DNA of 64,000 bases. It comes from Favolaschia claudopus. Taxonomy: Eukaryota; Basidiomycota; Agaricomycetes; Agaricales; Mycenaceae. The position numbers and the translations under genes were made by a program. Below are positions 34,652 to 54,253 of the stretch, piece by piece. The stretch spans positions 1,632,843 to 1,696,842 of the forward strand of contig JAWWNJ010000039.1 in assembly GCA_037176885.1 (NCBI GenBank), given 5' to 3'. Positions within the stretch are counted from its first letter, which is position 1; each line of letters opens with the position of its first letter. The notes beneath the pieces were generated by a model. The model was given only the letters and a program-made list of their open reading frames with translations. It ran no database searches and was not told the DNA's origin.

Positions 34652-35846
34652 TGTTGACCTAAGTCAACGGTGCTTTGAACGAATAATTCGTTCTTCTTGG
34701 ATGTAAGTCCAAGGTATAATCCTGTATAGGAAGGTAGAGATATTTCTATACGCCACAAGTCCAAACTCGGTGATAGGGCCGCCACGCGGCTAGGCATGAA
34801 ATGCCCAGAATTTATCGATTTTCGAGACCTATCAGCGGGAGAAGTGAGGCTAGAATAATAGAAGATATGCCCGTCCTCGCGGGCAGTATCTTATTGCTGT
34901 GGATAGCCGACAAGCTGGCGGGACACCAACGGGTAGCAGCGGCTTAGCGACGTTTCCCTAAACATGGGTGCGAAACTCTGCCGCTGACTATTTCTAAAAC
35001 TGCCGGGCCAAGGGACTTAGTGGGAAACTACTATCTCGAGGTGCTGGAGGCGACTAAGAGGAACTACCAACCTCCCTGAGGTTAGGCGCTCACCCGCCGA
35101 CCAACATGAAGAAGATCTAGCGGGGGACCATACTGAGTTCAACTTCGAACTCAGGACGGCCACCACTCTACCGACGAACAGGATCACCGGCAGGCTCTAA
35201 CCGAGCACGCCGGCTGATTACGGACAGCCAGGACTTAACCGACTGCCAGCGGGAGCACCGCGGAGCCAGCGGCTATCCAGCCAACGGCTCTGCCAGAATG
35301 ATGAGAAGGACATGGCGAGTTGCCGGGGGCATTTCCCGCTGATTGCGGACAACCCGAACGGCGAGTGGCGAGCCGCTAACACGGCTCGGCTCTCCCTATT
35401 TTCCCTGGGACTTAGACTGTTCTGAAGATAGAAGACGAGACGAACTTGACCGCTGTCGAGCCGTTGACTAACTACTCAGCGGGAAGCCTTTTCGACTTCA
35501 ACTCAACCAGCGGCAAGACCATATTATGAAGGAAGAATTTCGTGTCCCCTCCCGGGGACATGGCAACCAGCACGCCATTGCACTGCAATAAGGCGCAATA
35601 CCCACCCGCCTGCATGGACTTTCTCCGGGAGGCAGTCTTTTCACTCACGACTCGCAATCCTGAATATACCATTGGTTCCCAGCGGGCGCGGCATCAAACT
35701 TGGACACTCTCTCATCATGATTTTATTTGGTTGTTTCTGCTCCCGCTGCATGTATTTAATCTCCCGGTGTACTTTTTGTTACTCAGTCAATTACCTACCC
35801 ATAGACAAGGGCAGTTTGTAGCGGACTCTAGAATTTGAATTGAAGC
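34652..35846 (-). repeat. Probable older LTR, split by the chromovirus
   Basis: The sequence opens TGTTGACCTAAGTCAACG directly beside the gag fragment above. In minus orientation it ends in ...GTCAACA, as an LTR should. It has no gene over 1.2 kb. If the chromovirus is removed, it continues at 45,543. The other end and a second LTR were not found, so this is inference. Confidence 0.35.
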
Positions 35847-36385
35847 TGTTATATCCGTGTCGAACAAAGGGACGGAGGACGGGTGGCCGGAGGCCGGATG
35901 ACGGAGATGACGGAAGAGACGGAGGACGGAGGACGGATACGGAGGACGGGTGAAGCGATACCACAGGGGGCTAAGGGTACGCCACTAACTAGACTTCCAA
36001 GAAGATAGAGGATTCTGACCACGGAGCAATGCGGAGGCAAAGCACGTTAATTTTCAACTGAAGTTACAAGACGAAGTAGATAGGTATATATACGTATTAC
36101 GGAGAAAGGCCATATAAGGTAATAGTAAGTAAAGACAATAAGAGTTGTAAGCGAAAGAACAATAAAGACAATAGAGACAATAAGGGAGAAGCATACAGGC
36201 ATAGATCATGGGATTGATTCGGGAACGCTCAGAAGACCTTCATTGCGAAAACCCGATGGGTGTATGCTTCGACGGATGAACCGGAGCACATAAGGACGGA
36301 CAAGTAGAAGTAGGCCGGGGGCCGGATGGCCGGAGGCCGGGGGACGGATGGCCGGACGACCGGGTGAAACTGCATGGGCGTAACA
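35847..36385 (-). repeat. 3' LTR of the chromovirus
   Basis: It is the 539-base LTR with termini TGTTA/TAACA. Left of it is the GAAGC target duplication, and right of it (inside) the polypurine tract. It contains a symmetric TATATATA at 36085-36092 and CGGAGGACGG-type repeats. Because TATATATA reads the same on both strands, this copy could also start plus-strand transcription toward the antisense gene (ATG at 36574). Confidence 0.93.
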
Positions 36386-36400
36386 GTATCCCCCTCTTAA
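36386..36400 (-). other. Polypurine tract of the chromovirus
   Basis: On the minus strand the bases just before the 3' LTR read AAGAGGGGGATAC. This is a purine run in the exact place where plus-strand DNA synthesis is primed in Ty3-type elements. Confidence 0.75.
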
Positions 36401-36573
36401 GGTTCCTTGACCCTAAGGAACCTAAGAGTTCTGTGGAATCAGAATGAGTCGTAGGGATGACGAAAGGAAGGCCGAAGAGTCCGATAGAATAATTGTTGAC
36501 TGCGCATCAAAAAGTCACGTGAGATCGTGGGAAGTTGAACTTGGCAAAAAACTTCTCTCTTCCTACTACCACC

Positions 36574-38434
36574 ATGTCGCCCGCCCCGTCCAACTCGTCT
36601 GCCCCGCCCCGTCTCACCGCCAAGCAGAAAGCCAAGGGCCGCCTGGTGCAACGTCGCCGGGTGGAAAGCGAAGAGGAACACCCCGAGGACGCCGCCTCTG
36701 TCGACGAGGACCACCACCGCCGACAAATCCCGCCGCCTCTCTTGGAGGAGGCCAACAAGCAAGCGGATGGGTTGCTTGCCCACCAACTCCATGAACAAGA
36801 GCTGGAGTACTTGGACGAGATAAAGACCCTCAACAAGCTCATCAAGGATAGGAAGGCACTTCGTCGACGACTGGAGACTGGCAAGGCCGACAACAACGAC
36901 CGCGTCCAGGCCACCGACGTTATCCGCGGGGTCACTCCGGACAAGGCGGACGTGCCGGACGAGTCGATGCACTCCAGCGATCATAGTACGGTGCCGGAGG
37001 GTATGGAGGAGGTTGTAGAGGATGAGGAAGTGGCGAAGAAGGCGGGAGGAAAGCGGGGACGGAAGACGGAGGAGACGGAGGAGCGTCCTCGCAAGAAGAT
37101 GAGGCCGGAGGAGATCGAGTGGGAGGAGAGGAAGCCGGGTGAGTCTTCGTCCGGGTATTGACATTGACGACTAACTTCCAATAGCATGCAAGAAATGCGT
37201 GGCGAAGGGCGTTCCATGCCTCTTCGCCAAGAACAAGAAGCAAGACGCTTGCAAGGCCTGCGCCGAGGCCCACATCAAGTGCCCGGCTTTGCCGGAGAAC
37301 GCTGCCCGCCCGCCCACTGTCAAGAAACACCGGGTGGAAGAAGCTCTCAAGGCGAAGTCGGAGGGCCGGGCGAAGCCGGAGGTCAAGAAGACCAAGACCA
37401 AGGTGGTGACGCGTGCCCCGGCTGCGACGGGTGGGCCGGACGTTACTCCAACGTCCGCTGCCCACTCGTTGGAGCTGAGGAGGGTTAGGGCGCGCGTCAC
37501 CCAATTGGAGACCTTTTGCGACTTCATGGCGGAGCGGTTCTGCAACCAGTGGGAGAAGGATATTGGGGGAGTCGTTCCACACGAGATAGTGGAGTATTTG
37601 CAGAGCAGGGGAAGGATGCCGCTGGATGAGGTGAGGGACGACGACGAGAAGGAAAAGAAGAAGGAGAAGAAGAAGGAGATGGATGACTGGCGGAAGAACG
37701 TTTCGCCAGGTCAGCCGGAGGAGGAAGAGGGAACGGACGAGGACGAAGAAGAGCAAGCTCCGGCTCCGGCCCCGACCCGTCCACCTACCCCCGGCCCATC
37801 GCACCAACCCACCACTCCCCGCACCCCGCGCACCCCTCGCACTCGCCTTGGTACGCGCGCACCGACCTCCGGTCGTTCGAGGAAGTCGGTACAATCGGTG
37901 AGCACGTTTGCCGGCCCCTACCTCATGCTCAACCAATACACGGCATTGTATCAGATGCCGCCGGAAGAGCCGGAGATCAAGCGGGAGCCGGGCGTCGAAG
38001 AGAAGGCGGAGATCGCGCTGGCGTTGGAGCGTAGTGCGGCGAGGAAGACGGAGAAGGTGGCGGATAAGAAACGGAAGGAGGAACTGGAGAAGTTGAAGGC
38101 GGAGAAGGCGGAAGCGGATAAGCGGAAGGCGGAGGAACAGGAGAGGGATAAGGAGCGGGATGAAAAGATCCAGGCGCTCCAGGTGTCGTTGGAGGAGGTG
38201 AAGAAAGAACCGGAGGAGCAAGTCGTACCTCCGGCTGAAGTGCCGGAGGGATTTATGAGGACGGTTGAACAGGGGAAAGAAGTCCTCGTCCTCATGGACT
38301 CGGATGACGAGAGGGATGGAGAGGCGGAAGAGGAAGAGACGGAAGAGGCCGGAGAGGCGGAAGTGGCCGGAGAGGCCGGGGGAAATGAAGAAGGGCCGGA
38401 TGTTGGAGGTGAACAGTCCCAGGCGGACTTGTAA
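36574..38434 (+). CDS. Antisense Zn2Cys6-like coiled-coil protein inside the chromovirus
   Basis: Two exons (36574-37138 and 37185-38434) join at a 46-base GT-AG intron with a CTAAC branch site, coding for 604 residues. The ATG sits in ACCACC context; an upstream frame start is only a TTG. Residues ~60-110 form a coiled coil. Cysteines 190, 193, 200, 211, 214 and 221 give C-x2-C-x6-C-x10-C-x2-C-x6-C, the spacing of fungal Zn2Cys6 DNA-binding domains. A Pro/Thr/Arg-rich hinge (~350-400) and a charged coiled coil (~455-530) follow. IKRE (453-456) and VKKE (527-530) match the SUMO-acceptor consensus, and VLVLMDSDDE (555-564) resembles a SUMO-interacting motif. The last ~40 residues are acidic. 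It is tail-to-tail with pol, 153 bases apart. A nuclear regulator is inferred, not shown. Confidence 0.82.
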
Positions 38435-38587
38435 ATAAAAAATGAACTTTTTGTAAATAAAATCGAATAGCGAACCGAATTGTTTTCTTGGTCCTTTTTG
38501 GTGTGAAGTAAGCCAAGTCGGATGAGCCGGGTGACGGGTGAGCCGGAGGACGGAGGAGCCGGAAGACGGGTGAACGCGTTCATCCGG

Positions 38588-41500
38588 CTACCACTCGGGT
38601 CCTGGCTTGTCGGGATATTTGACATGGAATTGCGCTAACAACTCGGGCGAATCCAAGTCATCCGCAGCAACCCATTCCGAATTGTCGCCAGTATGAGTCC
38701 AACCCTTCCACTCTACAAGATAGCGTAGAGGACAACGTCGGAATCGTCTATCGATTTTGGAGTCGAGAATAGCCGACACTTCGTAATGTTCTTCCCCATC
38801 GATCACTTCGACCGGACCGGGCGGAATATCATTTCGACCGGGGAATGGATTAGGATCGTGCGGTTCAAGTGAGGAAACATGAAAGACCGGGTGAATGCGC
38901 GAAAGAGCTTTGGGAAGTTTGATCCGGTACGACGCGCCGGAGGTCTTCTCGAGGACTTCGTAAGGACCGAAGTGCGTCTCAGAGAACTTCTCCGTAGGAC
39001 GGGTCGTGGCAATGAACTCCGTAGAGATGAAGACCTGGTCGCCCGGCTTGATGTCCGGGTCGGGAAGACGTTTCCGGTCAGCGATCTCTTTGTAACGCTC
39101 CGTAGCAATAGTGAGCTGCGTACGAAGGTATTCATGAACGGATTGAAGTTCATAAACATAGTCGCGAGCCTTGTCGACGTTGTTGCCTTCGACAGAGGTC
39201 TCGTGGAATGTAAGAGCCGGATGATAGCCCTTGTTGGCGAAGAATGGCGATATACCGGTGGAAGCGTTCGGAGCGTTGTTGAGAGCGAACTCGCCAAGAG
39301 GCAGAAGCTCGTCCCAGTCGTCCTGGTGGAACGCACAGTACATCCGAATATACTGCTCGACAGTTTGGTTCATGCGCTCCGTCTGCCCGTCCGCCTCCGG
39401 ATGGTGGCCGGACGTGAAGTGCATAGTCATGCCGAGTAGTTCGCCAAGTGCGCGGAAGAAAGCCGATACAAACTCCGTCCCGCGGTCGGAGGTGATGTGG
39501 GACGGAACTCCATGTTTCGAGAAGACGTGAATAAGAAAGAGCCGGGCGAGTTGGACGGACGTGATGTGGAAGTCGCAGGGAATGAGGATGACCTGTTTCG
39601 ACGCCCGATCAACTATAACGCAAATACAGTTGTACTCGCCAGCATAAGGAAGGTTTTCAATGAAGTCGATAGAAATAGAATGCCATGGACGGAGTGGGAC
39701 GGGAAGAGGCCGGAGGAGTCCATATGGCTTGTGCCTCGGGGCCTTGTTGCGCTTGCATTGAGTACAGGATCGGCAGTAATCCCGGACGAACGTTCGCATG
39801 CCGGGCCAGGCGTATTCGCGCCGGACGAGAGCCAAAGTTCGGTTCTGTCCAAAATGGCCGGAGAGAATGTGGTCATGCTTGTTCTGAAGAACACGTACGC
39901 GTAGGATATCGGGAGTATCACCAGAAACCTGCGGGACATAGACGCGGTTGTTGAGTAAGAGTAGACCGGTTGCGTCAAGAGTCCAGCGCGTGGTGCCGGA
40001 GGAGCCGGACGATGCGATATCGAGTCCGGCTGCTGCAGCGGGGTCGTCGGGATAATGGGATTTGATGTCGCGATGAAGTTGTTCCGTGTCCATTAGAGCT
40101 GAAGCACGAAGGCAGACATCTTCTAGGTAGGTCGCATTAAGGGACGCAGTCAACTGATCGGTAGAAAAGATGGGCCGAAAATTCTGAGGATTGACTTTAC
40201 TGAAGGCCGTATCCCCCTCTTTCGGATAGACGTCCCATCGTCTAGTTAACGCGTCCGGCTTGCCACCTAGTCGTCCCGGACGGAAGCGAATCACCATATT
40301 AAAATGGCAAAGGTATTCGGACCAGCGTACTTGGCGACGGGTGAGAGTCTTGGTCGTCGCAAAGTATTCTAGATTCTTGTGGTCCGTGACAACGTCGACA
40401 GGATGTGCGGTACCCTCGAGATAATGACGCCAATGAGTAAAGCAATCAAAAATAGCAAGGAGTTCCTTATCGTGCGTGTCGTAGTTTAATTCCGGGGGAG
40501 TGAACGTCCGGCTCCGGAATGCCACAGGATGCCATTCGCCGTCCTCTCCCTGAATAGAGAGGATGCCGGCGAGAGCATAGTCGGACGCGTCTGTCTCGAC
40601 CATGCATTCGCGACCAGGGATCCAGTGGGCTAGTATTGGCGCCGATGTGAAGGCAGCCTTGAGAGTGTCGAACGCGTGCTGACAGGCCGGACTCCAATCC
40701 CACCGGACCGCAGCCCGGGTGAGCCGGGTGAGCGGAACAGTGATGCCGGAGTAGCCATAGATGAAGCGACGGTAGAAGTTGCAAAAACCAAGGAAGGATT
40801 GAACGTCCTTCACTTTCCGGGGGACGGGCCAGTCAGTGATAGCGGAGATCTTCTCCTCCGACATGCGGAAACCGTCCGGCGACAGGATGTAGCCGAGGTA
40901 TTCGCAAGTCGTAACACCGAATTCGCACTTCGGAAGCTTGCAGTACAAGCCAGCTTTACGAAGGCGACTGAGCACTTCACGAACGTGCTCAGTATGGTTG
41001 GACGGGTCGTCGGAGTAGACCAAGATGTCGTCGAGGTAAACGACGACGTAAACGTCCAAGAGATCGGCGAAGAGGGAATTAAGGAAGCGCTGAAAGGCGG
41101 CCGGAGCATTGGATAGTCCCTCCGGCACGACTCTGAAATTATAAGAGCCATACCGGGTGCGAAAAGCGGTTTTGTACTCATCTCCCGCGGCAATCCGGAG
41201 CAAATGGTATGCGTGCCGGAGATCCAGTTTCGTATAAATTCGAGCCTTTCCCGGGGCGTCGAGAAGGTCCGCAATCAGAGGAAGCGGATAGCGGTCCTTC
41301 TTGGTGATTCGATTGAGGCCACGGTAGTCAACGCAGAGCCGGAGACTTCCGTCCTTCTTTTTAGCGAAGAGGATTGGTGCGCCATGGGAGGAACGAGCCG
41401 GAAAGATGAAATCCGACTTTAAGTTCTTGTCGATGAACTCCCGGAGCGCAGCCAACTCGGCCGGAGAAAGGGAATAGATGGGACCGACCGGAGGCTCCGC

Positions 41501-42499
41501 GCCATCGATAGTCTCGATCTTCAGATCGTAGTCTCGATGGGGCGGTAGATTGTAAGCCTCGGATTCGGAGAAGACGTCGGCGAAGTCGTGGTACTCGGGT
41601 GGAATGCCTTCGGTGCTGAAAGGCGGGCCATCCGTAGTAGCACTTCGTCCGGCAACCTCGTCCGGAGGTTCCATACGAATAGTGAACTGGGTGGTGTCTT
41701 TGTCGCGGATGATGACGCTGTATGCAGCAGCATTGATGATCGACACAAGGGGTGCGGTGAATCTAGAGCTTGTCGCCGGAGGAGACTTGTCCGGTCGATC
41801 CGACGCCGGCGGGGAGAAGGCCGGACGAACCTCAGGAGCAGAGCCGGAGGTTGGCGATGATATTATGTTGGATTGCGATTGAGACGGAGGAGCAATTGGG
41901 GTTGCCAAGTCGTCCGCCTTCTCCGTAACTGGAGGTATCGCCGGTAGAGTCGGAGCAACGTCCGAGTGTGTCGACACAGCAGAATCACCGTAAACTGGAC
42001 AGAACTTTAGTGAGGCTGAACGCCAGTCAATCGACGGATTGTAGCGGCGGAGCCAATTTAGTCCAAGAACCGAGTCGCAGGTAGAGTCTAGACGGGTAAC
42101 ATAAAATTCCATAGAATGGACATCGCCGGTTGGAAATCGAACAAGAAGCTGGATTTGCTTGTCGATGACCGAAGAGGAGCCGTCGAGATATCGCAGTTTG
42201 ACTGGCGGGACCGCATACGGAGAAAACCCATTAGATTCGCATACTCGAGCAGACACAAAACAGTGAGACGAGCCGGAGTCGATGAGTGCCCGTAAGCGGG
42301 AGTTGAATCCCGCGGCAACTCTTGTTACAACGTCCGGACGCAGGGTTAGGCCTACGTCCGAAGTGGGAGGAATACCGAAAATGCCGGGCGTAATGCCGGA
42401 CGAGGATAAATAGTCCGCGGAAAATACAGATACATCAAGATCAACATTAAAAGAGTTCGGGGAAAGAGCGGAAGCGTTGAGTGTCACCTCTGGATACAC
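38588..42499 (-). CDS. pol: Chromovirus Pol (protease, RT, RNase H, integrase, chromodomain)
   Basis: It is open for 1,303 codons from a GTG at 42499. No ATG lies nearby, and the frame is open back to the gag stop region, so Pol is made by -1 frameshifting. Numbering from that GTG: aspartic protease DSG at 74-76; RT with LDLRHAY (~425-431) and YLDD at 488-491; RNase H TDASD at 636-640. The integrase zinc-binding part ends C909-x2-C912-x2-C915. The integrase triad is D945, D1005 and E1041, with exactly 35 residues between the last two. A C-terminal chromodomain follows, with YEVSAILDSKIDRRF and YLVEWKGWTHTGDNSEWV. The length and order are those of a full Ty3 chromovirus. No stop or missing catalytic residue was seen. 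Confidence 0.95.
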   Translation of the reverse strand: MYPEVTLNASALSPNSFNVDLDVSVFSADYLSSSGITPGIFGIPPTSDVGLTLRPDVVTRVAAGFNSRLRALIDSGSSHCFVSARVCESNGFSPYAVPPVKLRYLDGSSSVIDKQIQLLVRFPTGDVHSMEFYVTRLDSTCDSVLGLNWLRRYNPSIDWRSASLKFCPVYGDSAVSTHSDVAPTLPAIPPVTEKADDLATPIAPPSQSQSNIISSPTSGSAPEVRPAFSPPASDRPDKSPPATSSRFTAPLVSIINAAAYSVIIRDKDTTQFTIRMEPPDEVAGRSATTDGPPFSTEGIPPEYHDFADVFSESEAYNLPPHRDYDLKIETIDGAEPPVGPIYSLSPAELAALREFIDKNLKSDFIFPARSSHGAPILFAKKKDGSLRLCVDYRGLNRITKKDRYPLPLIADLLDAPGKARIYTKLDLRHAYHLLRIAAGDEYKTAFRTRYGSYNFRVVPEGLSNAPAAFQRFLNSLFADLLDVYVVVYLDDILVYSDDPSNHTEHVREVLSRLRKAGLYCKLPKCEFGVTTCEYLGYILSPDGFRMSEEKISAITDWPVPRKVKDVQSFLGFCNFYRRFIYGYSGITVPLTRLTRAAVRWDWSPACQHAFDTLKAAFTSAPILAHWIPGRECMVETDASDYALAGILSIQGEDGEWHPVAFRSRTFTPPELNYDTHDKELLAIFDCFTHWRHYLEGTAHPVDVVTDHKNLEYFATTKTLTRRQVRWSEYLCHFNMVIRFRPGRLGGKPDALTRRWDVYPKEGDTAFSKVNPQNFRPIFSTDQLTASLNATYLEDVCLRASALMDTEQLHRDIKSHYPDDPAAAAGLDIASSGSSGTTRWTLDATGLLLLNNRVYVPQVSGDTPDILRVRVLQNKHDHILSGHFGQNRTLALVRREYAWPGMRTFVRDYCRSCTQCKRNKAPRHKPYGLLRPLPVPLRPWHSISIDFIENLPYAGEYNCICVIVDRASKQVILIPCDFHITSVQLARLFLIHVFSKHGVPSHITSDRGTEFVSAFFRALGELLGMTMHFTSGHHPEADGQTERMNQTVEQYIRMYCAFHQDDWDELLPLGEFALNNAPNASTGISPFFANKGYHPALTFHETSVEGNNVDKARDYVYELQSVHEYLRTQLTIATERYKEIADRKRLPDPDIKPGDQVFISTEFIATTRPTEKFSETHFGPYEVLEKTSGASYRIKLPKALSRIHPVFHVSSLEPHDPNPFPGRNDIPPGPVEVIDGEEHYEVSAILDSKIDRRFRRCPLRYLVEWKGWTHTGDNSEWVAADDLDSPELLAQFHVKYPDKPGPEW

Positions 42500-42511
42500 C
42501 TCGGAGTCAAC

Positions 42512-42559
42512 GCGGCTCGGGCCAGGTGCAGAGGGGGCCGAGCCGCTGACTATTTTTTT
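42512..42559 (-). promoter_or_regulatory. -1 ribosomal frameshift signal between gag and pol
   Basis: In the gag frame the last codons are CCA AAA AAA TAG. This gives the slippery heptamer A-AAA-AAA (42553-42559) immediately before the stop. Six bases downstream a perfect 9-bp GC-rich stem (GCGGCTCGG at 42538-42546 pairing with 42512-42520) closes a loop of about 17 bases. The -1 frame then reads IVSGSAPSAPGPSRVDSEV straight into Pol. Heptamer, spacer and stem all match known -1 frameshift sites. Confidence 0.85.
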
Positions 42560-44964
42560 GGCTCGGAGGTGTTGGCGTTAGCAGAGGCGCCAGGCGGCTG
42601 AGAAGCAGTAGCCGCCTTGCCTTGAATCGCACTCTGCCGCTTCCGACAGTCGGCAGCCTTATGTCCGGGGTTCCCGCAGAACATGCACAGATTGTTCTTC
42701 ATCCGGCGCTCACGTTCCTCCGGCTTGAGACGGCCGGAGGAGTCGAGTTTGGCGGCGTACGGCTTCTGCTTAGGCTGAGCCTGTGCGCCGTTAGCAGCCG
42801 GAGAAGCGGGAGGATGGTTTGGAGACGGATTAGGCTTGCCGGACGTAAAGGGCTTTCCCCGGCCCTTACCCTTCTGTTGTCTACCACCACCGCCGCCGCC
42901 TGCACCGGGAGAATTGCCGGGCGGATTGCCGGACGCATTCGGGGTGCCGGGCGAGCGATGAGCCGCAGGCGGATTGGTCGCGCGTTCCCAATTCTTCTCC
43001 TGCAAGCGCTGGTGATAGCGCTGGTCGATCGAACGCGAAAGGTTCTTGAGACCCTGCAGAGAAGCCGGGATGAGGCCGCGGCACAATTCGTCCTTGATGC
43101 GGGACGGAAGACCACGATAGAAGAAGCGGTGAAGGGCCGTGTCGTTATACCCCGTCAACTTTGCATGCGCATCGAACTCGACTTGATAAGTCGCGATGCG
43201 ATCCCCCGGCTTCATACTCAACTGCTCCAAATGAGCCCGCGCTTCTCCGGCCATATCGGGCGGACCGAAGTTGGTAACGAGCTCTTGGATGAACAGCTGG
43301 ATGTTGCCGTCCCAAGCCGGAAGAGGTGCTCCCTGATTGAACACATCCATCTGGAACCATTGTTGGGCGGTTCCACGCAGGTACGAACGGATGTAATTAA
43401 TTTTATCATCATCCGTCGGAAAATCCTGCGGGCGTTCGTCAATGTGAAGATAGACTTGGCCGATGAACGTAGGAAGCTTGCTCGGGTCCGAACCATCGAA
43501 GGTGTCCGGAGCTCTGAGAGCCGAGCGATTCGAACGCGGAGGAGCTGTCGCGTTGTTGGCAAGGATTGCCATGGCTTGGGAGATCTGCTGGACTGCGAGA
43601 TCAAACTGGGGATTATGCGGAGCAGGATAATAATAAGCCGGACCAGGAGGGCCGGGCGGACCAGGAGGACCACGGGGACCGGGAAATGGCGGAGGACCAA
43701 AAGGACCACCGCCGCCCCCGCCACCACCACCACCCCCACCACCTCCGCCGCCGTGCCCTCCAGCGCCACCTCCACCGGGGCCATAGCCGGGTGGGAAAGG
43801 CGCGTTGGGAATGTTGGGAGGCTGACCGCCTGGACCGGGAGGATTGCCACCAGGACCACTAGGCCCACCAGAACCGCCAGGACCGCTCGGACCACCAGGT
43901 CCAGGAGCGGGCGGAGGAGGCGGAGCCGGGGGAGCCGGAGGTGCTGGGTTCGACTGAGAAGGTGCCTGTGCTTGTTGACCAGTCGGTTGAGCCGGAGGAG
44001 CTGGTGCGACCGGGGCAACCGGAGGAACTGGAGCAACAGGAGCAGTAGGAGCGACTGTAACAACAGGAGCAGCAGTTACCGTGGTAGAAGCATCCGGAGC
44101 CGGAGGGGCGACCGGAGCTGCCGGAGCTACTGGTGCTGTTGGAGCTGCCGGGACCGTAGTGACAACAGGTGCCGGAGCATTAGGTGCTTGAACAGACGAA
44201 GTCGATTGAACAGGAGGCAATACAGGAAGTTGGGGTCCAGAGGTAGATGCCTGTGGGGCCGGGGGAACAACCGGAGGTTGGACAGCCGGAGCCACAGGTG
44301 TGAGAGGATTAGCGGGTTGTTGGCTAGGCGGAACGAACGGGAAGCTGGGTGCCGGAAGTACGGGAGGCGCAGTGTCAGGGCGCGCAGTTGGCCGAGGAAT
44401 ACGAGGGCCACCGAACTGAACCGGACCAGAGAAATCAGCCAAAGGAAGGAAAGGACCCTTAACAACCGGAGCCGGAGGAACAGCCGGAGCAGGTTGCATT
44501 GGAGGAGCGACAATCGAAGGCAAAGGAGCGAGTGCCTCAACCGATTCCGAAGATTTCAAGGAACCGGGAAGAGCAACATCTTCCGCCTGGCCGGACCACT
44601 CGTGGATAGTGGACGGAAAGGCAGAAGGCCGGATCGGTGTCGGAGAAGGGTAACTTTCTTGACTGCCCCGTCGTTCGCCATAGAAAGAAGGACCAGGGTA
44701 CTGAGGAGAATTCGAGATGACGGGAGAGACCGGACGAGCACGAAGAGCCGAGCCCTGATTCGCTCGGGAAAGTGGAGAATGAGTCCACATTACCGGAGCA
44801 TTGGGGCGAGGAATTCGAGACTCATCGAAGTGCGCGGTCCGAGAGTAGGGGTCATCTTGGTAGTAAGAACCTGGAAGATCGATTTGGATGGAGCGGGAGA
44901 ATCGGCGCGATTGGCGACGATTGTCAACCTGGGAGGTATTAACGAGGTGCGAGTAGTCGGACAT
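42550..44964 (-). CDS. gag: Chromovirus Gag
   Basis: This 804-residue structural protein starts only 34 bases inside the 5' LTR (ATG at 44964, MSDYSHLVNTSQVDNRRQSR). The first ~340 residues are Pro/Ala/Val-rich. Next is a collagen-like and glycine-rich tract (GGGGAGGHGG, then a run of about 16 Gly, then GPRGPPGPPGPPGP). The retrotransposon Gag domain follows (FIGQVYLHIDERPQDF, RGTAQQWFQMDVFNQG, FDAHAKLTGYNDTALHRFFY). A basic Gly-rich linker leads to one CCHC zinc knuckle (CMFCGNPGHKAADC) near the end. Ty3-type Gags are usually much shorter; the length comes from the disordered N-terminal half. It ends at the frameshift site. Confidence 0.93.
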   Translation of the reverse strand: MSDYSHLVNTSQVDNRRQSRRFSRSIQIDLPGSYYQDDPYSRTAHFDESRIPRPNAPVMWTHSPLSRANQGSALRARPVSPVISNSPQYPGPSFYGERRGSQESYPSPTPIRPSAFPSTIHEWSGQAEDVALPGSLKSSESVEALAPLPSIVAPPMQPAPAVPPAPVVKGPFLPLADFSGPVQFGGPRIPRPTARPDTAPPVLPAPSFPFVPPSQQPANPLTPVAPAVQPPVVPPAPQASTSGPQLPVLPPVQSTSSVQAPNAPAPVVTTVPAAPTAPVAPAAPVAPPAPDASTTVTAAPVVTVAPTAPVAPVPPVAPVAPAPPAQPTGQQAQAPSQSNPAPPAPPAPPPPPAPGPGGPSGPGGSGGPSGPGGNPPGPGGQPPNIPNAPFPPGYGPGGGGAGGHGGGGGGGGGGGGGGGGPFGPPPFPGPRGPPGPPGPPGPAYYYPAPHNPQFDLAVQQISQAMAILANNATAPPRSNRSALRAPDTFDGSDPSKLPTFIGQVYLHIDERPQDFPTDDDKINYIRSYLRGTAQQWFQMDVFNQGAPLPAWDGNIQLFIQELVTNFGPPDMAGEARAHLEQLSMKPGDRIATYQVEFDAHAKLTGYNDTALHRFFYRGLPSRIKDELCRGLIPASLQGLKNLSRSIDQRYHQRLQEKNWERATNPPAAHRSPGTPNASGNPPGNSPGAGGGGGGRQQKGKGRGKPFTSGKPNPSPNHPPASPAANGAQAQPKQKPYAAKLDSSGRLKPEERERRMKNNLCMFCGNPGHKAADCRKRQSAIQGKAATASQPPGASANANTSEPKK

Positions 44965-44998
44965 GGAAACGAAGCCAGTTAGGGTGAGTTGAAAATAC

Positions 44999-45537
44999 TG
45001 TTATATCCGTGTCGAACAAAGGGACGGAGGACGGGTGGCCGGAGGCCGGATGACGGAGATGACGGAAGAGACGGAGGACGGAGGACGGATACGGAGGACG
45101 GGTGAAGCGATACCACAGGGGGCTAAGGGTACGCCACTAACTAGACTTCCAAGAAGATAGAGGATTCTGACCACGGAGCAATGCGGAGGCAAAGCACGTT
45201 AATTTTCAACTGAAGTTACAAGACGAAGTAGATAGGTATATATACGTATTACGGAGAAAGGCCATATAAGGTAATAGTAAGTAAAGACAATAAGAGTTGT
45301 AAGCGAAAGAACAATAAAGACAATAGAGACAATAAGGGAGAAGCATACAGGCATAGATCATGGGATTGATTCGGGAACGCTCAGAAGACCTTCATTGCGA
45401 AAACCCGATGGGTGTATGCTTCGACGGATGAACCGGAGCACATAAGGACGGACAAGTAGAAGTAGGCCGGGGGCCGGATGGCCGGAGGCCGGGGGACGGA
45501 TGGCCGGACGACCGGGTGAAACTGCATGGGCGTAACA
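44999..45537 (-). repeat. 5' LTR of the chromovirus
   Basis: It is identical by eye to the 3' LTR over 539 bases. The TATATATA at 45237-45244 is about 270 bases upstream of the gag ATG and is the likely promoter of the genomic RNA. The adjacent internal sequence (GTATTTTCAACTC on the minus strand) does not match a tRNA 3' end that I recognise, so priming may be unusual or self-primed. Confidence 0.93.
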
Positions 45538-45542
45538 GAAGC

Positions 45543-47576
45543 TTTGAACGAGACTAGACTTGATATCTGAGAGAGATTCGAGTGATACGGAAAGACTTGT
45601 GGCATACCGAGCCGCCAGAACTTTGAGAGCCCCGCCAGCCTTTGAGCCCGAGCCCTCCTGAAATACGAAGCCCCGTTTCTCGCCGTTCCGCGGTATAACC
45701 AAGACCCCCGTTCGTGCTTGATTCCGCGCCGTCGACGCCCCGTGTGCCAGCCGTTCCGCGGTATAACCAAGACCCCCCGTTCGAGCTCGCCGCCGCGTAG
45801 TGGTGTAACTGCCCGGGTCACTGTTAGTGTCCGCGCCATCGACATAAGAGCCCCGCTTCTCGCCAGAGCCGCGCCGGTCGTATAAGAACCCCGTCCCGCT
45901 GAGCCGCGCCTTCTGCCCGCCGGTTGTCATCCAGAAAGCTTCTTGCCGGTTGACGATCCACTACCGGGCGACGCTTTTCTATTGGCACGGAGACCCTCCC
46001 CGCTAGACTCAGAATTTCTCATTTCGAAGTCTCAGAAAGAGTGACTCTTCGCTTCTCCCGCTGCGAATTGTTTTGCCCGCTACGTTCTCGCTAGACAATC
46101 TAATAGTTCGTCCCGCTCAAACGTAGCGACCTTGATTGATTGAAGCTTGCACAAGTATTCTGAGGGACGATACGTGCTCCCGCCACCCCGAACACACACA
46201 CACACACACGTCGTATTGGATTAGATTTTGTGATTTTATATTTCGGTATATTTCACGCCTACACCTACACGCACCGTTTCATCGGCTCGAGATTTCTACT
46301 TTGAAGTATAGAGATAGATGAATGAACCCCTCGCCGTAGGCTCCAGATGAAACATAGGGCAACTGTGGAAAACACCCAAGAAATGAACGGAATAAATCCT
46401 GATCAAATCCCAAATATAATCCTAACCACTATGAGATCGACGTGCGAGGTTCGGGGTTCCAGTCCAGTATAGACTGTGGGTATCCAACTATCTTAATACT
46501 CAAAATATACTAAACTTAAGCTTTCGCGATTGCTGACTTTGTACAGAGAATGTCTATACGAATCCTATGTTGACACAGGAAGTGTGGGTTTCAACAAAGG
46601 TTGAGATGTAACTCTTCTCAGAAGGTTTAGGTGTTTTAGTTGCTTGTAGGGCCGCGGATATATCTATCGTGAAAGATGTCTATAACTGTTTCACGTGTCC
46701 GAATGCCAAAGTCTTATAATTCCACGCGTAATGTTCTCAAAATCTGATATTCACGCGTACAATTCAAGATATGATCCAACAGACAATATATATTGACAAA
46801 ACAAACCAAAGAAAACAAATAAGCTGCTGGAGTTTATCTCGAATGGAGTCCAACGTCTAGTTATTCACAAAGCCAATACTGGCTTGACGCTCACAACCAG
46901 AGGAGGGAATCCACTGGAGCCCCAGTACATGAAACGATGCCTTTTATACCTTTCACTGATAAATAATAAGAGACCGAACAATTGACAAACAGGTATATGG
47001 TGAGAGAAACCTAGGGCCCGCCTTGCCCTTGCCCTATCCTTGGTTGCCAGAACAGGAAATGGATCAAAAGTGCATTGAGTCCCACTCCCTTATCCCAATC
47101 ATTATGTTATGACAGTGGCCCGCTGCGGCCCAATCAATATTGCCCAAATTGGCATTAATGGGTGTCCCTCCTCGGACCGTGCTCCTTGATCGTAATACGG
47201 CGGCAGCCACCTCGGCATGACGTGTAGTTCCTTGTAGGAATATTCTACGTCCGCAAATCCCTCGCAATTGATTTATAGAATTATTTGTGAAAGCCTCTTG
47301 CCTCCAGGAAACACTCCTTCTGGCCTTTCGGCAGGTTCTTATAAGTCTCAAGTTATATCCCACTCATTCTGCCTTTGGTCGGAACACAGGGTGACTCCCA
47401 ATCCTATTCCGGATGGTTAGAGACCTATCGTGATAGGTCTGTTCTGGAATATTATAACTTCCACGCTATTCCAGCGCAGTCGTAGACAGTGCCAGACCTC
47501 CACTTAGTGTATAATCCTTTAACTGGCCGCTCAGGCAAACACCAGTCCTCATACGAGCGTATTCCCTTGATATTTA
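45543..47576. other. Noncoding, right flank of the chromovirus
   Basis: The first ~600 bases are CCCGC/GCCG-rich and probably continue the older LTR cut by the chromovirus (34652-35846). A short (AC)9 microsatellite lies at 46192-46209. The rest is AT-rich with no gene, and leads into a copia gag relic. Confidence 0.4.
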
Positions 47577-48620
47577 ATGTATTACTCTTTTAATACATTA
47601 ACACTTGCACTGAAAATGAATAAATTCAGCCCTGGCCCAATACCGGGTCCATCAATGTCACATGTCACACTTTCCTGTGATCACATGGCTCCACCCCCTA
47701 TCACCACATCTCTGACTAATGTCCTCACTGTCATACTATTGGGCCAAGTTTGTGAAGAATTTCAAGGTCTTCCTTCTCTCGAAGCTCTCTGGCAGGTCCT
47801 GGTACTGAAGCCGACCATCTCTCCCTTGATCGCATGATCATCCCCCACCTCTACTCCCAGCTCCATAAGGACTATCAGTATCTTGTTGAGAATCCGGTCT
47901 CGGCTACTGCGGCTTTTAAATCTCTCAAGAGTCACTTCGAGAAATCGAATATGACCAATTGTATTGTAGGTCGCGCGGAGCTTAATGCTGTCTGCCACGA
48001 TCCTTCCAAGGATATCTCCGTCTACACCTGTGCTATGGCTGATGCTGTCAAGAAGCTCACTGTCATGGGGGTCACCATTGACAATGCATATTATAAGGAT
48101 CTTCTCCTTATCAACCTCCATCCCTCCTATAGCTCTGTCCGCACTGTCCTTCTCACCCGCGCTGCGGAGGCCACGCTCAAAGACGTCACCGACCTCCTCA
48201 CGGTGTCTGCTGCTGATCCTGGGATCAAGCAGGAGGATGATGGCCTCAGTTCCCCTTGCTCGTAGGGCTCCTGTTCCCCGTCGCTCTGCCCTTGCTGCCA
48301 CCTCTTCTTCCTCTTTGACCGGCAGCATTTCTTTGGACGGTTTTCCTCAGGAGTCCCAGGGCTTTCAGTGGTGCGATCCCACTAACTCCAACTGTCATCG
48401 TTGTGGTCGTGTTGGCCATATCGGTCATAAATGCATGCATACCATGCCTGCCTTCGTCAAGGATTGGATCAATTCCAATCTTTGCTCTCTTCAGTCACAC
48501 AAAGCTGCCGCTCTCGATGCTGGCCTCGATCCTGAGGTGTTTCTTGAGCTCTGGGGCATCCACGTTACAGTGATGTCTCTGACCTGGCCCCTCATCGGAC
48601 TTAGCCGGATCAGTGGGAGA
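47577..48620 (+). pseudogene. Ty1/copia gag relic with zinc knuckle
   Basis: Blocks of copia-type Gag (UBN2) occur on the plus strand: LDRMIIPHLYSQLHKDYQYL, SATAAFKSLKSHFEKSN, DISVYTCAMADAVKKL and YYKDLLLINLHPSYSSVRTV. A CCHC knuckle follows (CHRCGRVGHIGHKC). Frame changes occur near 47,770 and 48,240, and no protease or integrase follows, so it is a truncated, dead copy. The capsid-like domain would be about 230 residues. Confidence 0.72.
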
Positions 48621-48682
48621 TGGAGTGTTGGATCGGTGGGAGTATTTGTTCTTTGTTCGCTTTCGTCTGTCCCAGGTGGGAG

Positions 48683-48780
48683 TGTTGAATGTGGTGTTTG
48701 GTGTGGTTTGGTACAGACGGTGTTGCTTTCCTTTTTCGTACATTGTCACGTATTTAGGCAATGTGACGAGGCTTTCCACC
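48683..48780 (+). repeat. Dispersed ~98-bp repeat, copy 1
   Basis: TGTTGAATGTGGTGTTTGG and the following ~80 bases (GGTACAGAC, TTCGTACATTGTCAC and TATTTAGGCA words) recur at 53246-53345 with a few changes. It starts TGTTGAA like an LTR end. It may be an LTR fragment of another family or a small nonautonomous element. Confidence 0.6.
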
Positions 48781-49799
48781 TCCAGGGAGGTTTTGGGGGG
48801 TCACAGGGTCAGGTTCTTCTGAGACCTTGGTATCCGCTCATGGAGCACCACAGTAGAGCTCCTGTTATAGCGAGAATGCTGGGAGGAGAACATGAGAATC
48901 TGAGCTCTAGCAGCAGAGAACATCTTACAAAATCAAGTTGAGACAAAGTTGCAATTGTTGTGCCACAGAAGTATGCTGGCTACATGTTACCAGGCCAACT
49001 TGAGCCTCTTGCTTCGCAAACACAGAAAACAGCATCATCTTCCTCATGGGGGCAGCATCCATGTAAAGTCTTGAGGCATGGATAAGCAGAGAGATATATA
49101 CGGTGAATGGGTGTACAACACCCTTGTGGAGATTAAGGGGCTGGGTTTCATGAGGTATTTAGGTGCATCATTCTTGCCATATTTATTCTGAACTGTGCTG
49201 ATTTTTTCTTTCTCCACACCGAACACTGGGCACATTGTAATGTCTAATGAGTTTTTCCCCCCTCTTCCCCCCTCCCTCTCTCGGAACAACAGCGCGATGG
49301 TGCCGAACTTGCACTGTTTCCGCTTGTTGTGGCACCGAAGCAGTGCTTTGTTTGCTTTTGTCACTTGCTTGCGCTGTCTCTCTCCTCTCGTTGTGACACG
49401 CACTGCAGCGAGATGACCCCTGCCCATGTCATTTGCCTGTCACTGAACTTGGCCAGGAGTCCCTTCTATTTTTTATTGGCTTACTGACCATTTGCAGGTA
49501 AAACGCGCAGTGGCGCATCTTACACAGCACTTCCGCCGGACCCCCCTCTTAGTTGGATGTTGACCTCGAAGCGCTCTTCCAGTGCAGCGAGGAAATGCGG
49601 CAAACCGAAGCCCTTGACGACCATCGTGCTCGTGCCCCCCATATTGACCAGCCAACGGCGCTCATCTTTCCCACCCCTCACCGCCGCCGCCAAGGTGCAG
49701 TTGTATGCCGCTGTAGAAGGTGTGCATGTAGCTCGGATGGCAGAGGCGAGGGCAAGAAGGTGCGCAATCACTCTAGCCTTCATCTCTCTCAGGTAACTC
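48781..49799. other. Noncoding / unrecognised
   Basis: A minus-strand ATG frame (49520-49783, MKARVIAHLLALASAIRATC) and its plus-strand shadow both look somewhat protein-like, but neither has a known domain. The rest shows nothing. Confidence 0.3.
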
Positions 49800-50785
49800 T
49801 GTGCTCAGAAAATATCCATTTCCTGCATTGACGACACCTCTGTTGAGCGCGGTGCAGATGCCGACCTCGCGCAGCTCACCTCCGGCTCTCACCCTCCTCA
49901 CCAAAAGCTGAACAAGGCAGCCTATCATAAGGCTCGGTGCCAGCAACACCAAGTCTGCATGGACCGGCATTCACCCTACCAAGGGCACAGATATCCGCCC
50001 TTATTCGTTGGAGAAGCTGCAAAAGACACACAAATTTAGGGAATATGATTGCTAACATGTAACATCATAGGACATGTCATCCACTCGTTGACAAGGGGAA
50101 TCAGGTTGCCTTGCTGGACGCCTACGCGAGGAGTCCTACAATGATGTTGTCGCAGAGGCTACCAACTTGTTCTACAAGGACTCTGAGCAGGCCACAGGTG
50201 ACAGCCGGCGTGGTGACTTCATCGCTGTTTCTGCGGGTGTCTCTTTTGGTGGAGGCCAGAAGGTACGTGTTGAACCTACTACATATACCTCTCATACTGA
50301 ATGCCTCTATAGCGCCCAGGTGCATTGTTGAACAACAAGCGTAACTGTACCATCTGCTCTCAGATGGTGCTGAGCTGGGCCATCATGGGCATCGTTGGGT
50401 TTGCTACAGGTATTAGCCTCTACCTTATATTTTTTCCTCCATCAATCCTGCATGCAAAGGCATTTTCAAGGCCTACTCACCGAAACTATTCAAATACTAT
50501 TCGGAGACACCTCACACCAAGCACTCCTATCTCTGCTACTGGAGTCACCGCCTTTTCTGCCTGCACTTTCAATTTTGGCCCGCACACCATTACAGTTCCA
50601 CATGTCAATGCTGCCAACCTCGTTTGGGGGTTGGTGCTGCATTAATGCACTCGGTCACTTCAATCCAGACTTGGGGGGTCATCTGGTGTTGTGGGATCTG
50701 AAATTGATCATTTGATTCCCCCCTGGTTCGACAATCTTGATTCCCTCTGCCCTGCTTCGCCATTCGAATACAACTATACAGCCTG
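49800..50785 (+). pseudogene. TET/JBP-type 2-oxoglutarate dioxygenase relic
   Basis: This is a broken member of the fungal TET/JBP family, which oxidises 5-methylcytosine and is amplified with transposons in mushrooms. Blocks in order are a YSLEKLQKTHKFREYD-like N-terminal motif, YNDVVAEATNLFYKDSEQAT and GDFIAVSAGVSFGGGQKRPG. The double-stranded beta-helix core follows: FKAYSPKLFKYYSETP, FNFGPHTITVPHVNAANL and CINALGHFNPDLGGHLVLWD. It ends FPPGSTILIPSALLRHSN, then TTIQPGE. Several frame changes, a TGA at 50713-50715, and loss of the last conserved block (cut at ~50,785 by copia sequence) show it is dead. The iron-binding H-x-D reads H-V-N here (50601-50609). Confidence 0.68.
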
Positions 50786-51240
50786 GTGAGAGACACAGAT
50801 TGGATCTGGCTTCTGATTTGAAGTGAGTTTCGCACCAGTAACCAGATTCTTATTCAAGATCTCCTGGCTGTCATTGTGATGCCCAAGTCGACGATGCAAC
50901 AGTTCCAGATCAAGAGGCAAAGTCCCAACTGCAGCCAAAGCTGAAACAGAATCAGAAGGCACTTCTCTCACAAATGCTTGGTTCCTCTCGTCAATATCTT
51001 CAAAGAATGTTTCACCATCCTTAACAAAACAAATAGTGTTCTGCTCCATGAGAATAGAGTAGCCATGAACACGAGATAGATAGGTGGTAGAGACGATGTT
51101 GGAATGTGGGTTTTGCCTCTGACATCTCTCACTCTCATGAGTGAGGAACACTGTATGAGATAAAACGTAGGGCTTGAAATCTTCCTCTGCCAAAATGCGG
51201 GCTGAACTGACGACGTGAATTTTGAACAAGCAGTTCAAGT
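50786..51240 (-). pseudogene. Ty1/copia pol fragment (gag-pre-integrase region)
   Basis: The minus strand reads YLSRVHGYSILMEQNTICFV, KDGETFF, LPLDLELLHRRLGHHN and ILNKNLVTGAKLTSNQKPDP. This is the gag-pre-integrase domain of fungal copia elements (the H-R-R-L-G-H-H zinc site). It is cut at ~50,785 against the TET/JBP relic, and no integrase core follows. A 47-base LTR end lies in frame inside it (51097-51143). Confidence 0.7.
51097..51143 (+). repeat. 47-bp LTR terminus embedded in copia coding sequence
   Basis: TGTTGGAATGTGGGTTTTGC and the next 27 bases match the start of the solo-LTR family (A, B and C), then homology stops. Its frame is open in the surrounding copia fragment, so it is read as protein. 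No second LTR end or target duplication is visible. Confidence 0.7.
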
Positions 51241-52452
51241 TAGCATGGTTTTGGAAACACTAGCTGCTAGAATGTTGATCTTGAAGTCTGCCCTCCGTTC
51301 CTGAGCTGCCGAGTCGATGTAGTTTGCTGAATTAGTGAAGCCTACTCGCTTTGCCAGTGTTGCTTGGAACAGACTTGTCGACAATTTCCTCGATCTGGTG
51401 AGAGAATCTGCCACCACACAACCTTCCATCCAGGTCACCCTCTCCCGACCTATCTGTCATTAACCTGCTGCCTTGCCGATTGCTGACTTCCATGCACCGC
51501 AAGCTCTGTCTCCTGAGAGGGTTGGTACTCAATATATGTACATCCTGCACCAGCATGCTGCTGTTTGCGGGGAGGAGCAGAATAGACAACATGAACTGTT
51601 CTGGAAACAGGAGAATGCACTCAAACTTCAGCACGATGAGGGTAACAGGGCAATTGATCAGCAGATTACCCAGGAGTTTATTGCCTGGGGCATAGGACAC
51701 TACACATGTGGATCCAGGACATCAGTCAAGAGATAGGATCCGTCCGTGAAAAGCAAGCCGCCAGTGAAAAGGCTGTGTGCCATATTGAGAAATTGCTGAC
51801 ACGCTGTCAACTGTTCAATTCAATTTGTTCACACGTGTGTGGCCACATTTTTTTGGGTTACCCCACTGAAGAAGCAGCGTACAAAACCCCAGCAGATCCC
51901 GGCAATCACTAGTAACCAGATTGTTGCTCAAGATCATTGTGATGCTCAAGTCGACGGGCAAGTGGGGACTTACATCAGTAGTATGGTATTCAAAGGTGCA
52001 GGGGCAATGAAGAGAAGAAAAAGGTGTTTTGTCACATATGTCACATCAATGCAATCAAAGTTAGGTTGATCCTGACCCTAATGAGCTTTTGTGTGAATCA
52101 TCCTTCCATATCAAATAAATTCGTACAACCTGCAAGTGCTGTTCACAATAGCATTGTTAGTTGTATTCACTTTGACTGCTATTCAGCCAACCCACCGAAT
52201 ATCTACTCGGTTCTATTCCCTGCTGTTTGCTACCAACACAGCAGTGCGGCTTCCAGCCACAGGCATAAGAAAGTGCTATTGCTAATTTTTTTAATTGTCC
52301 TAGCTTAGTTAAGGAGTTTGGGCAGAATCTTGCTGCATATGTAGGTGAGTTCAATAAAAGACCTCATTTGCAAACAGGAAGGTTTGGCCAGATGATCGTA
52401 TTTACTACTCTAAAGGCAATGAAATTCGATTTTGCAATTCGAACCACATGAG
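51241..52452. other. Noncoding / unrecognised, left of solo LTR B
   Basis: A plus-strand frame at ~51,510-51,730 looks like a coiled coil (AVCGEEQNRQHELFWKQENA) but begins without an ATG and has no known domain. A related-looking run (SEKAVCHIEKLLTRC) follows to 51,910. Nothing else is supported. Confidence 0.3.
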
Positions 52453-52854
52453 TGTTGAACAGGCAAACACAGAGGTCTGAAGTCAACAGTGAGAACTCTA
52501 GTAGATTGCAATGTGAAGTAGATACTTGCCTGAAGTCAACAGTGAGAACTGAGGACTCAAGGCACTAGCTAGGCTGTATATATAGGTACAGGAACAAAGG
52601 GAATGCTACATATGGTAGATAAAGGGAAGACCTAATTGGGCACAAAGGAACTACCTAATTGGGAACAAGGGGATTACCATAAAGAGAACAAAGGACATAG
52701 GATCAGTAGGATCAGGTATCAATGATAGGGGATCATAAAGGATCAGAGGGTGCATAGGATCAGTAGGATCAGATATTGATGATAGGATCATAAAGGATCA
52801 AAGGGGTGACGCTCATGAGAGTGAGAGATGTCAGAGGCAAAACCCATTCCAACA
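52453..52854 (-). repeat. Solo LTR B of the Ty1/copia-like family
   Basis: It has 402 bases, termini TGTTG...CAACA, and perfect 5-bp target duplications ATGAG at 52448-52452 and 52855-52859. It is very close to LTR A, differing by small indels (a 10-base agccataaag-type duplication present in A is absent here). No internal region remains. Confidence 0.88.
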
Positions 52855-53738: not shown

Positions 53739-54253
53739 TTGAGGTGCTACCTACCGCGACCTGTGCGATTCAATTGGAATACGCGTGGAGTCTGGGTCCT
53801 TGGATTTGTCTTTCATATGGCGTGGACAGCTCTCTTACATCTGTTGGAGAAACACATCCATCTTGCTTTAAGGACCAGTGATTTCTATTCTATAGCCGAC
53901 AACGCCAGCCTTGTCCGTAGCGTGTTTCAAGTTCAGAATCCAATACCAAACATAGACGCTCTCGCAACGTCTCTCACTTTGATGTGGACATTGACACCCG
54001 AAACGTGGTTTGATTTGCCCTGGGCCCAGCTCGAAAGCTACACGGTTGAATAGTTTTCATCACGATCTGGAAGCCTTTTTGGTCCGCTGCCCCAGTTTGA
54101 GCATCCTTTCTCTGGCGCTTCAGATTGTGCATACCGGAGCCACGATCATACAACACATGCGCGCCCTCCTGCTTTGCAGTCCCTCTTCGTTCCCACTGCA
54201 AACTGAGACTTGTTATTTTGATTCGTTTATATCCAGCTTGCTGCGTGGTTTTT
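53739..54253 (+). pseudogene. Possible F-box/LRR protein relic
   Basis: The plus strand reads WFDLPWAQLESYTVE, then in another frame DLEAFLVRCPSLSILSLALQ. Together they resemble the leucine-rich part of Agaricomycete F-box proteins (LPW-x-QL followed by CP-x-L repeats). Stops and a frame change break it, and no F-box is present. The call is weak. Confidence 0.25.

What the first reader, a model, noticed from the sequence alone, without database searches (positions are those of the whole stretch)
36574..38434. Spliced antisense gene carried inside a young LTR retrotransposon
Between pol and the 3' LTR the chromovirus carries 2.2 kb that is useless to the sense RNA but encodes a 604-aa protein on the other strand, with a good ATG context and a 46-base GT-AG intron. 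A sense-strand intron would be lost at each RNA cycle. An antisense one is invisible to splicing of the genomic RNA and survives, just as in laboratory retrotransposition reporters. The protein has Zn2Cys6 spacing, two coiled coils and an acidic tail. HTLV-1 HBZ, an antisense-encoded leucine-zipper regulator, is a functional analogy only. A self-encoded transcriptional regulator of the element is my inference.
Basis: partly seen in the sequence, partly recalled or inferred. Interest (0 to 1): 0.88.

Follow-up and report, generated by a model that had tools for sequence, protein, structure and literature searches.

The report
Swappable antisense gene in retrotransposons
Two families of a jumping gene in this genome carry an extra gene, written backwards and interrupted by an intron, that is mostly kept in working order yet differs strikingly between otherwise near-identical copies, which hints that the jumping genes swap versions of a control protein.

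Summary
It is no one-copy accident. All 11 family copies found in this genome carry the gene or its remains; 9 are full-length and open. A sister family (pol about 69% identical in DNA) has an antisense gene at the same place in 9 of 9 copies, 8 open, with a 46-47-bp intron beside the same cysteine spacing. New here: the gene is a hypervariable, mosaic cassette. Copies whose pol differs by 0.5-0.8% differ by 12.5-12.8% in it, yet within an allele class gene and pol diverge alike, so old alleles were exchanged, not hypermutated. The sister family repeats this. dN/dS (0.40, A-B) lies below 200 of 200 neutral simulations. The likeliest role is a nuclear, element-encoded regulator, but there are no expression or binding data. 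Antisense accessory genes are known (plant Retand/Grande, Botrytis brtn, HTLV HBZ); the intron kept across two families and the exchanged alleles make this a new variant.

The parts
35847..36385 (-). 3' LTR of the element (539 bp)
   Evidence: identical to 44999-45537; TSD GAAGC at 35842-35846 and 45538-45542
36386..36573 (.). 188-bp stretch between LTR and antisense ATG: polypurine tract of the element, palindrome GGTTCCTTGACCCTAAGGAACC (36401-36422), and a likely promoter/5' leader of the antisense gene with a TCACGTGA box at 36515
   Evidence: 0-3 differences in the 155 bp 36386-36540 among eight copies; the last 33 bp before the ATG vary more in alleles C (5) and D (10); CACGTG in 11 of 11 copies checked, palindrome in 10 of 11; the 17-bp LTR-end/PPT string has 24 exact hits genome-wide, 0 for the reversed control; promoter role inferred
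36574..37138 (+). antisense gene, exon 1 (predicted N-terminal coiled coil by composition, basic NLS-like stretch)
37139..37184 (+). 46-bp GT-AG intron with CTAAC branch-like motif
   Evidence: 46 bp in all 10 family copies in which it was read; 46-47 bp in 9 of 9 sister-family copies
37185..38434 (+). antisense gene, exon 2 (zinc-cluster-like motif, coiled-coil-like stretches, acidic tail with SIM-like VxVLxxSDDE)
37187..37282 (+). C-x2-C-x6-C-x10-C-x2-C-x6-C motif
   Evidence: sequence and alignment; Pfam Zn_clus 13 bits, below cut-off 21
38435..38587 (.). 153-bp gap between antisense stop and pol stop, with AATAAA signals just after the antisense stop
   Evidence: signals seen in 4 of 4 copies printed; 96-100% identical to the window copy in 8 of the 9 other copies with this segment, 95% in allele D
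38588..42499 (-). pol (protease, RT, RNase H, integrase, chromodomain), 1303 aa
   Evidence: Pfam
42550..44964 (-). gag (Ty3 capsid-like; CCHC below cut-off), 804 aa
   Evidence: Pfam
44999..45537 (-). 5' LTR

Best explanation
The region is a standing accessory gene of a chromovirus clade, transcribed against gag-pol, most likely from the conserved 188-bp stretch beside the 3' LTR, spliced once, and ended at the AATAAA signals before the pol stop (inferred). It encodes a charged protein with a basic stretch, a six-cysteine cluster and coiled-coil-like stretches. Shown: the gene and its intron are kept in two families, the window family's gene is under purifying selection, and divergent alleles sit on near-identical elements and recombine, also piecewise. 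Inferred: the protein acts in the nucleus as a DNA- or chromatin-associated regulator of element expression or silencing. Its cluster region is conserved and its first part variable while LTR and leader barely change with the allele, so the variable part probably meets protein partners (itself, rival elements or host factors) rather than a changing DNA target. Exchange is most simply by template switching during reverse transcription, with DNA-level conversion possible.
For: Gene in 11 of 11 family copies found by LTR+leader, pol and gene searches, and in 9 of 9 sister copies found by LTR+leader. NG86 dN/dS 0.40 for A-B (bootstrap 0.29-0.55) against 0.51-1.29 in 200 neutral simulations. Antisense CDS differs 12.5-12.8% between A (window, L009, L010) and B, the 3' 2.86 kb of pol only 0.49-0.80%; within that A group gene 0.17-0.33% and pol 0.31-0.45%; within B gene 0.28-0.39% and pol 0.38-0.59%. 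Mosaics: L011 is mainly A with a run of 25 B-type sites over the intron and cluster (0 of 20,000 shuffles); L016 is mainly B in exon 1 and mainly A in exon 2. Sister copies are patchworks too. Residues 151-285 are 67-72% invariant across four alleles, residues 61-105 33%; a psi-K-x-E site and a SIM-like stretch occur in 4 of 4 alleles.
Against: No RNA or protein evidence. Pfam Zn_clus is below its cut-off in the three proteins where it is listed and not listed for allele C or the sister protein. Allele C has F at the second cysteine. CGG triplets, the usual half-site of Zn2Cys6 proteins (recalled), are enriched over shuffles in LTR, gap, pol and gag alike, so no LTR-specific target shows. With transition-weighted sites A-B dN/dS rises to 0.52 and A-D to 0.75, with no simulation made for that weighting.
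Confidence: 0.6

Rival explanations
1. Anti-silencing or host-evasion factor: the protein counteracts the host's silencing of the element and diversifies in an arms race, in the manner of the plant VANC proteins (recalled). This is a special case of the regulator reading.
For: In four sister copies the first 90 codons show dN/dS 0.85-1.39 in five of six pairs and 17 nonsynonymous to 1 synonymous change in the sixth (S2-S4).
Against: The S2-S4 result is one of six pairs on few changes (0.6% of bootstraps at or below 1). The window family's gene as a whole is below neutrality for A-B. No host target known.
Confidence: 0.25
2. The allele pattern needs no selection for diversity: elements with old divergent genes co-existed, one backbone spread, and ordinary recombination left it with several antisense alleles. 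(This concerns the variability only and can hold beside any reading of the function.)
For: Few exchange events are needed. Recombination between divergent LTR variants is discussed for the fungal element crapaud (PMC10787394, abstract and passages).
Against: The pattern recurs in the sister family, and the divergence is confined to the gene in both, with leader and 3' gap changed little.
Confidence: 0.35
3. The antisense RNA, not the protein, is the product: it pairs with gag-pol RNA and regulates it.
For: Convergent overlapping transcription would form dsRNA, a possibility raised for plant antisense ORFs (PMC7264820, passages).
Against: Selection acts on the protein frame: open in 9 of 11 and 8 of 9 copies, splice signals kept, third-position excess.
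Confidence: 0.07
4. A particle, RNA-transport or integration accessory protein rather than a regulator.
For: Highly charged protein without a confident DNA-binding domain.
Against: Antisense placement with its own leader would uncouple it from gag-pol; NLS-like stretches and the SIM-like motif suggest the nucleus (motif reading recalled).
Confidence: 0.12
5. A captured host gene carried as a passenger.
For: It has an intron, as host genes do.
Against: Present throughout two families at pol identity of about 69%, under selection, and the DNA searches list no further copy apart from short weak matches (73-145 nt, 70-81%), which were not inspected. A protein-level search of the genome could not be run.
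Confidence: 0.03

Closest known systems
Plant antisense additional ORFs between pol and 3' LTR (Retand TRP28, Grande gene23, RIRE2)
   Same: Same place and orientation, kept in many copies, suspected nuclear or DNA-binding regulator (PMC11963269 and PMC7264820, passages).
   Different: Retand is a non-chromovirus lineage; other protein domain (TRP28). The word 'intron' does not occur in the main text of those two papers, and no allele swapping appeared in the passages seen.
brtn of Boty-like elements of Botrytis cinerea
   Same: Antisense gene in a fungal LTR element whose gag-pol carries a chromodomain (PMC8365987, PMC4227169, passages; the original 2011 Virology paper was not seen, only its title in reference lists).
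   Different: Other host; sequence relation, intron and allele structure could not be compared here.
HTLV-1 HBZ
   Same: Antisense-encoded regulator, functional analogy (recalled, and a passage in PMC11963269).
   Different: bZIP protein of a retrovirus (recalled); no homology claimed.
Ty1 copy-number control by the self-encoded p22
   Same: Self-encoded control whose reach depends on the subfamily version of a gene, with versions moved by recombination (PMC7055915, abstract).
crapaud LTR subfamilies of Podospora
   Same: Divergent modules on otherwise alike fungal LTR elements (PMC10787394, abstract and passages).
   Different: The variable module is half of the LTR, not a gene.

Membership tests
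Chromovirus (Ty3/gypsy LTR retrotransposon) | gag, pol with RT-RNaseH-integrase order and a C-terminal chromodomain, paired LTRs, short TSD | tested here: met
   Pfam RVT_1, RNase H, integrase and Chromo above cut-off, Ty3_capsid above cut-off; LTRs and TSD
Antisense additional ORF of LTR retrotransposons (aORF-3R) | ORF between pol and 3' LTR, opposite strand, in all or most copies | tested here: met
   11 of 11 (one of them largely deleted) and 9 of 9 copies found
Antisense additional ORF of LTR retrotransposons (aORF-3R) | transcribed | not testable with these tools
   no RNA data
Fungal Zn2Cys6 binuclear cluster proteins | six-cysteine spacing CX2CX6CX5-12CX2CX6-8C (recalled) | tested here: met
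   met in the window and alleles A, B and D and in 8 of 8 open sister copies shown; not met in allele C, which lacks the second Cys
Fungal Zn2Cys6 binuclear cluster proteins | Pfam PF00172 above gathering score | tested here: not met
   13, 11.2 and 10.6 bits against 21 (window, B, D); not listed for allele C or the one sister protein scanned
Fungal Zn2Cys6 binuclear cluster proteins | zinc and DNA binding | not testable with these tools
   single-sequence model of 178 residues has pLDDT 57.8, not informative
Boty brtn | sequence homology to BRTN | not tested

The most novel reading that the evidence does not exclude
The antisense gene is a retrotransposon self-recognition locus: its protein represses elements that carry a matching allele, so rare alleles escape and are favoured, and elements renew their allele by swapping whole genes or pieces. 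This would be a eukaryotic retroelement counterpart of phage immunity repressors.
Probability: 0.2. Interest if true: 0.92.

Novelty: new variant of a known kind. Interest (0 to 1): 0.7.

Why it matters
Antisense accessory genes of LTR elements have been known for years without a proven function. Here one is kept with its intron across two families, is under measurable selection in one, and in the window family is, of the parts compared (LTR, gag, pol, gap), the only one that exists as old divergent alleles on a young backbone. That makes the question testable: allele-matched and allele-mismatched pairs exist naturally in one genome. The retained intron is itself a sign that the gene is read antisense.

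Tried and rejected
Hypermutation or a faster intrinsic rate of the region: rejected, since within allele classes gene and pol diverge alike. Sense-strand (env-like) reading of the region: rejected for the window family by stops in alleles B and D and by codon-position bias; in the four sister copies tested the mirror frame is stop-free, so there the case rests on intron, motif and position. LTR-specific CGG target array: not supported. A distant chromovirus at C40 (L054; chromodomain judged by eye): no plus-strand ORF of 100 aa or more beside pol, which does not exclude a gene of short exons. A third group of four elements sharing the LTR end and polypurine string: two looked at (L051, L052), no homologous antisense gene found. 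Homologues in viral contigs: 60 pattern matches, none confirmed. Solved structures: best E-value 0.22. Structure model: too poor to search with. Positive selection across the whole window-family gene: not seen. Papers: in the listings of nine searches (at most 10-20 papers shown each, open-licence papers only) I saw no description of an intron-bearing or allele-swapping antisense gene in a fungal LTR element; most listed papers were not opened.

Full report
Observation. The element occupies 35847-45537 on the minus strand. Its two 539-bp LTRs are identical and flanked by GAAGC. Gag and pol match Ty3-type capsid, protease, RT, RNase H, integrase and chromodomain profiles. Between the 3' LTR and the pol stop lie 2202 bp with a plus-strand gene: ATG at 36574, exon 1 to 37138, a 46-bp intron, exon 2 from 37185 to the stop at 38434, 604 aa.

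Copies. The own genome (264.6 Mb, 460 contigs) holds 11 places with LTR end plus leader, the same 11 with pol at 95% or more (40 of 155 candidates scored), and the same 11 with the gene. The tool calls such counts lower bounds; the exact 17-base LTR-end/PPT string gives the same 11 for this family. Nine genes are full-length and open (604, 604, 604, 604, 600, 605, 594, 594 and 613 aa); one (L016) is open for 486 codons up to a nested insertion; one (L018) is largely deleted. The intron is 46 bp in all ten copies where it was read, although its sequence varies; the GT, the CTAAC motif and the AG are kept.

Selection. NG86 dN/dS between allele classes is 0.40 (A-B), 0.40 (A-C), 0.44 (B-C) and 0.55 (A-D). 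Two hundred neutral simulations at the A-B distance gave a mean of 0.82 and a range of 0.51-1.29. The A-D value lies inside that range, though those simulations were made for the A-B distance. With transition-weighted sites the values are 0.52, 0.53, 0.58 and 0.75; no matching simulation was made for that weighting. Pol is far more constrained: 0.07-0.23 for ten copies against the window copy.

Hypervariable cassette. Four allele classes were found: A (window, L009, L010 and mostly L011), B (L012, L013, L014), C (L015), D (L017). Antisense synonymous distance from A is 0.26 (B), 0.26 (C) and 0.44 (D), while pol synonymous distance from the window copy is 0.026-0.031 (B), 0.062 (C) and 0.161 (D). 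The divergence is confined to the gene: the 155 bp 36386-36540 show 0-3 differences in eight copies, the last 33 bp before the ATG 0-2 in A and B copies but 5 in C and 10 in D, and the 3' gap is 95-100% identical. Within class A (without L011) the gene differs 0.17-0.33% and pol 0.31-0.45%; within class B 0.28-0.39% and 0.38-0.59%. So the region does not mutate faster; older alleles sit on a younger backbone. Recombination is visible inside the gene. Of 217 A/B-diagnostic sites L011 has 40 of B type, 25 of them in one run over the intron and cysteine cluster (0 of 20,000 shuffles reach this). L016 is mainly B in exon 1 and mainly A in the part of exon 2 read, with a short B-type stretch near 37966-38048.

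Second family. Pol hits at about 69% DNA identity led to a sister chromovirus. Beside its pol lies an antisense gene with an intron of 46 bp directly before CEHCVQDNAKCERRVGGRASACARCAGKKLGC, the same cysteine spacing as in the window. The intron is in phase 0 there and phase 1 in the window, within 2 nt relative to the first cysteine codon, so homology of the intron is likely but not proven. Sequence similarity between the two proteins is confined to the cluster: BLASTP E 3e-4 for allele C in a single comparison, 12 of 38 identical; tblastn E 0.04, 0.032 and 0.004 for alleles A, B and C and no match listed for D. Nine of nine copies with LTR and leader at 98-100% carry the gene at 83-100% DNA identity to the first. 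All nine were read: eight are open and one (C81) does not keep the frame. These copies are patchworks: S2 resembles S4 in the first 246 nt (5.3% different) but S1 in exon 2 (1.6%), and S3/S7/S8 resemble S5/S6/S9 in the first part (0.4-2.4%) but differ by 6.5-7.0% in exon 2, while the 3' gap differs by 0-2.8% among all pairs. dN/dS over the first 90 codons of four copies was 0.85-1.39 in five pairs and 5.9 (17 against 1 change) in one pair, suggestive but not firm evidence of positive selection.

How widespread. The 17-bp string at LTR end and polypurine tract occurs 24 times in the genome and its reversed control never: 11 window-family, 9 sister-family and 4 copies of a third group. Two of those four were read and show no homologous antisense gene. 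A distant chromovirus (L054) shows no long antisense ORF either.

Protein. Conservation across the four alleles is highest at residues 151-285 (0.67-0.72 invariant), which hold the basic stretch and the cysteine cluster, and lowest at residues 61-105 (0.33). A psi-K-x-E site near 453 and a V-x-V-L-x-x-S-D-D-E-like stretch near 555 occur in all four; reading them as SUMO site and SUMO-interacting motif is recalled knowledge and untested. Allele C lacks the second cysteine. Pfam Zn_clus never reaches its cut-off.

Mechanism. Shown: kept, intron-bearing, selected, exchanged. Inferred: own promoter in the leader (conserved, with a CACGTG box in 11 of 11 copies), nuclear action, regulation. Since LTR and leader are 98-99.5% alike between alleles A and B, allele differences probably do not reflect a changed DNA target. 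The intron can persist because splicing of the sense RNA cannot remove it (established logic of retrotransposition reporters).

Known context. Antisense ORFs at this place are described for several plant elements, and a regulatory role has been proposed (PMC7264820, PMC11963269; passages). Botrytis Boty elements carry the antisense gene brtn (PMC8365987, PMC4227169; passages; original paper not seen), and a Monilinia transcript resembles BRTN (PMC5987419; one passage). Self-encoded control with subfamily-specific reach is known for Ty1 (PMC7055915; abstract). Modular exchange in a fungal LTR element is discussed for crapaud (PMC10787394; abstract and passages). The present case adds a spliced gene kept in two families and allele cassettes that recombine. 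The host taxon was not established; that it is a fungus rests on the element type and short introns and is an inference.

Noticed in passing
window 45538-55561 and L012/L019 (C109): The C109 copy (allele B) shares the window copy's right flank (99.6% over 9.9 kb), but the 9.7 kb fetched to its left match nothing in the window, and its two flanks do not carry matching target duplications. It may be a second haplotype with rearrangement, ectopic exchange between copies, or an assembly mis-join.
   Followed up: partly
window 44987-44996 and 36050-36059: The stretch just inside the 5' LTR (ATTTTCAACT on the element's sense strand) is complementary to AGTTGAAAAT within the LTR, some 25-30 nt after a TATATA, which looks like Tf1-type self-priming (read by eye; Tf1 recalled).
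   Followed up: no
L051 (C28:920.6k), L052 (C10:1859k), also C108:32713 and C244:69441: A third group shares the LTR end, polypurine string and, in L051, a similar hairpin beside it, but L051 and L052 show no antisense gene of this kind; possibly non-autonomous relatives.
   Followed up: partly
window 36401-36422: Palindrome GGTTCCTTGACCCTAAGGAACC next to the polypurine tract, kept in 10 of 11 copies; a possible protein-binding site or hairpin.
   Followed up: partly
L016 (C28:1080000-1089999): A nested insertion of about 4.4 kb lies inside exon 2 of this copy.
   Followed up: no
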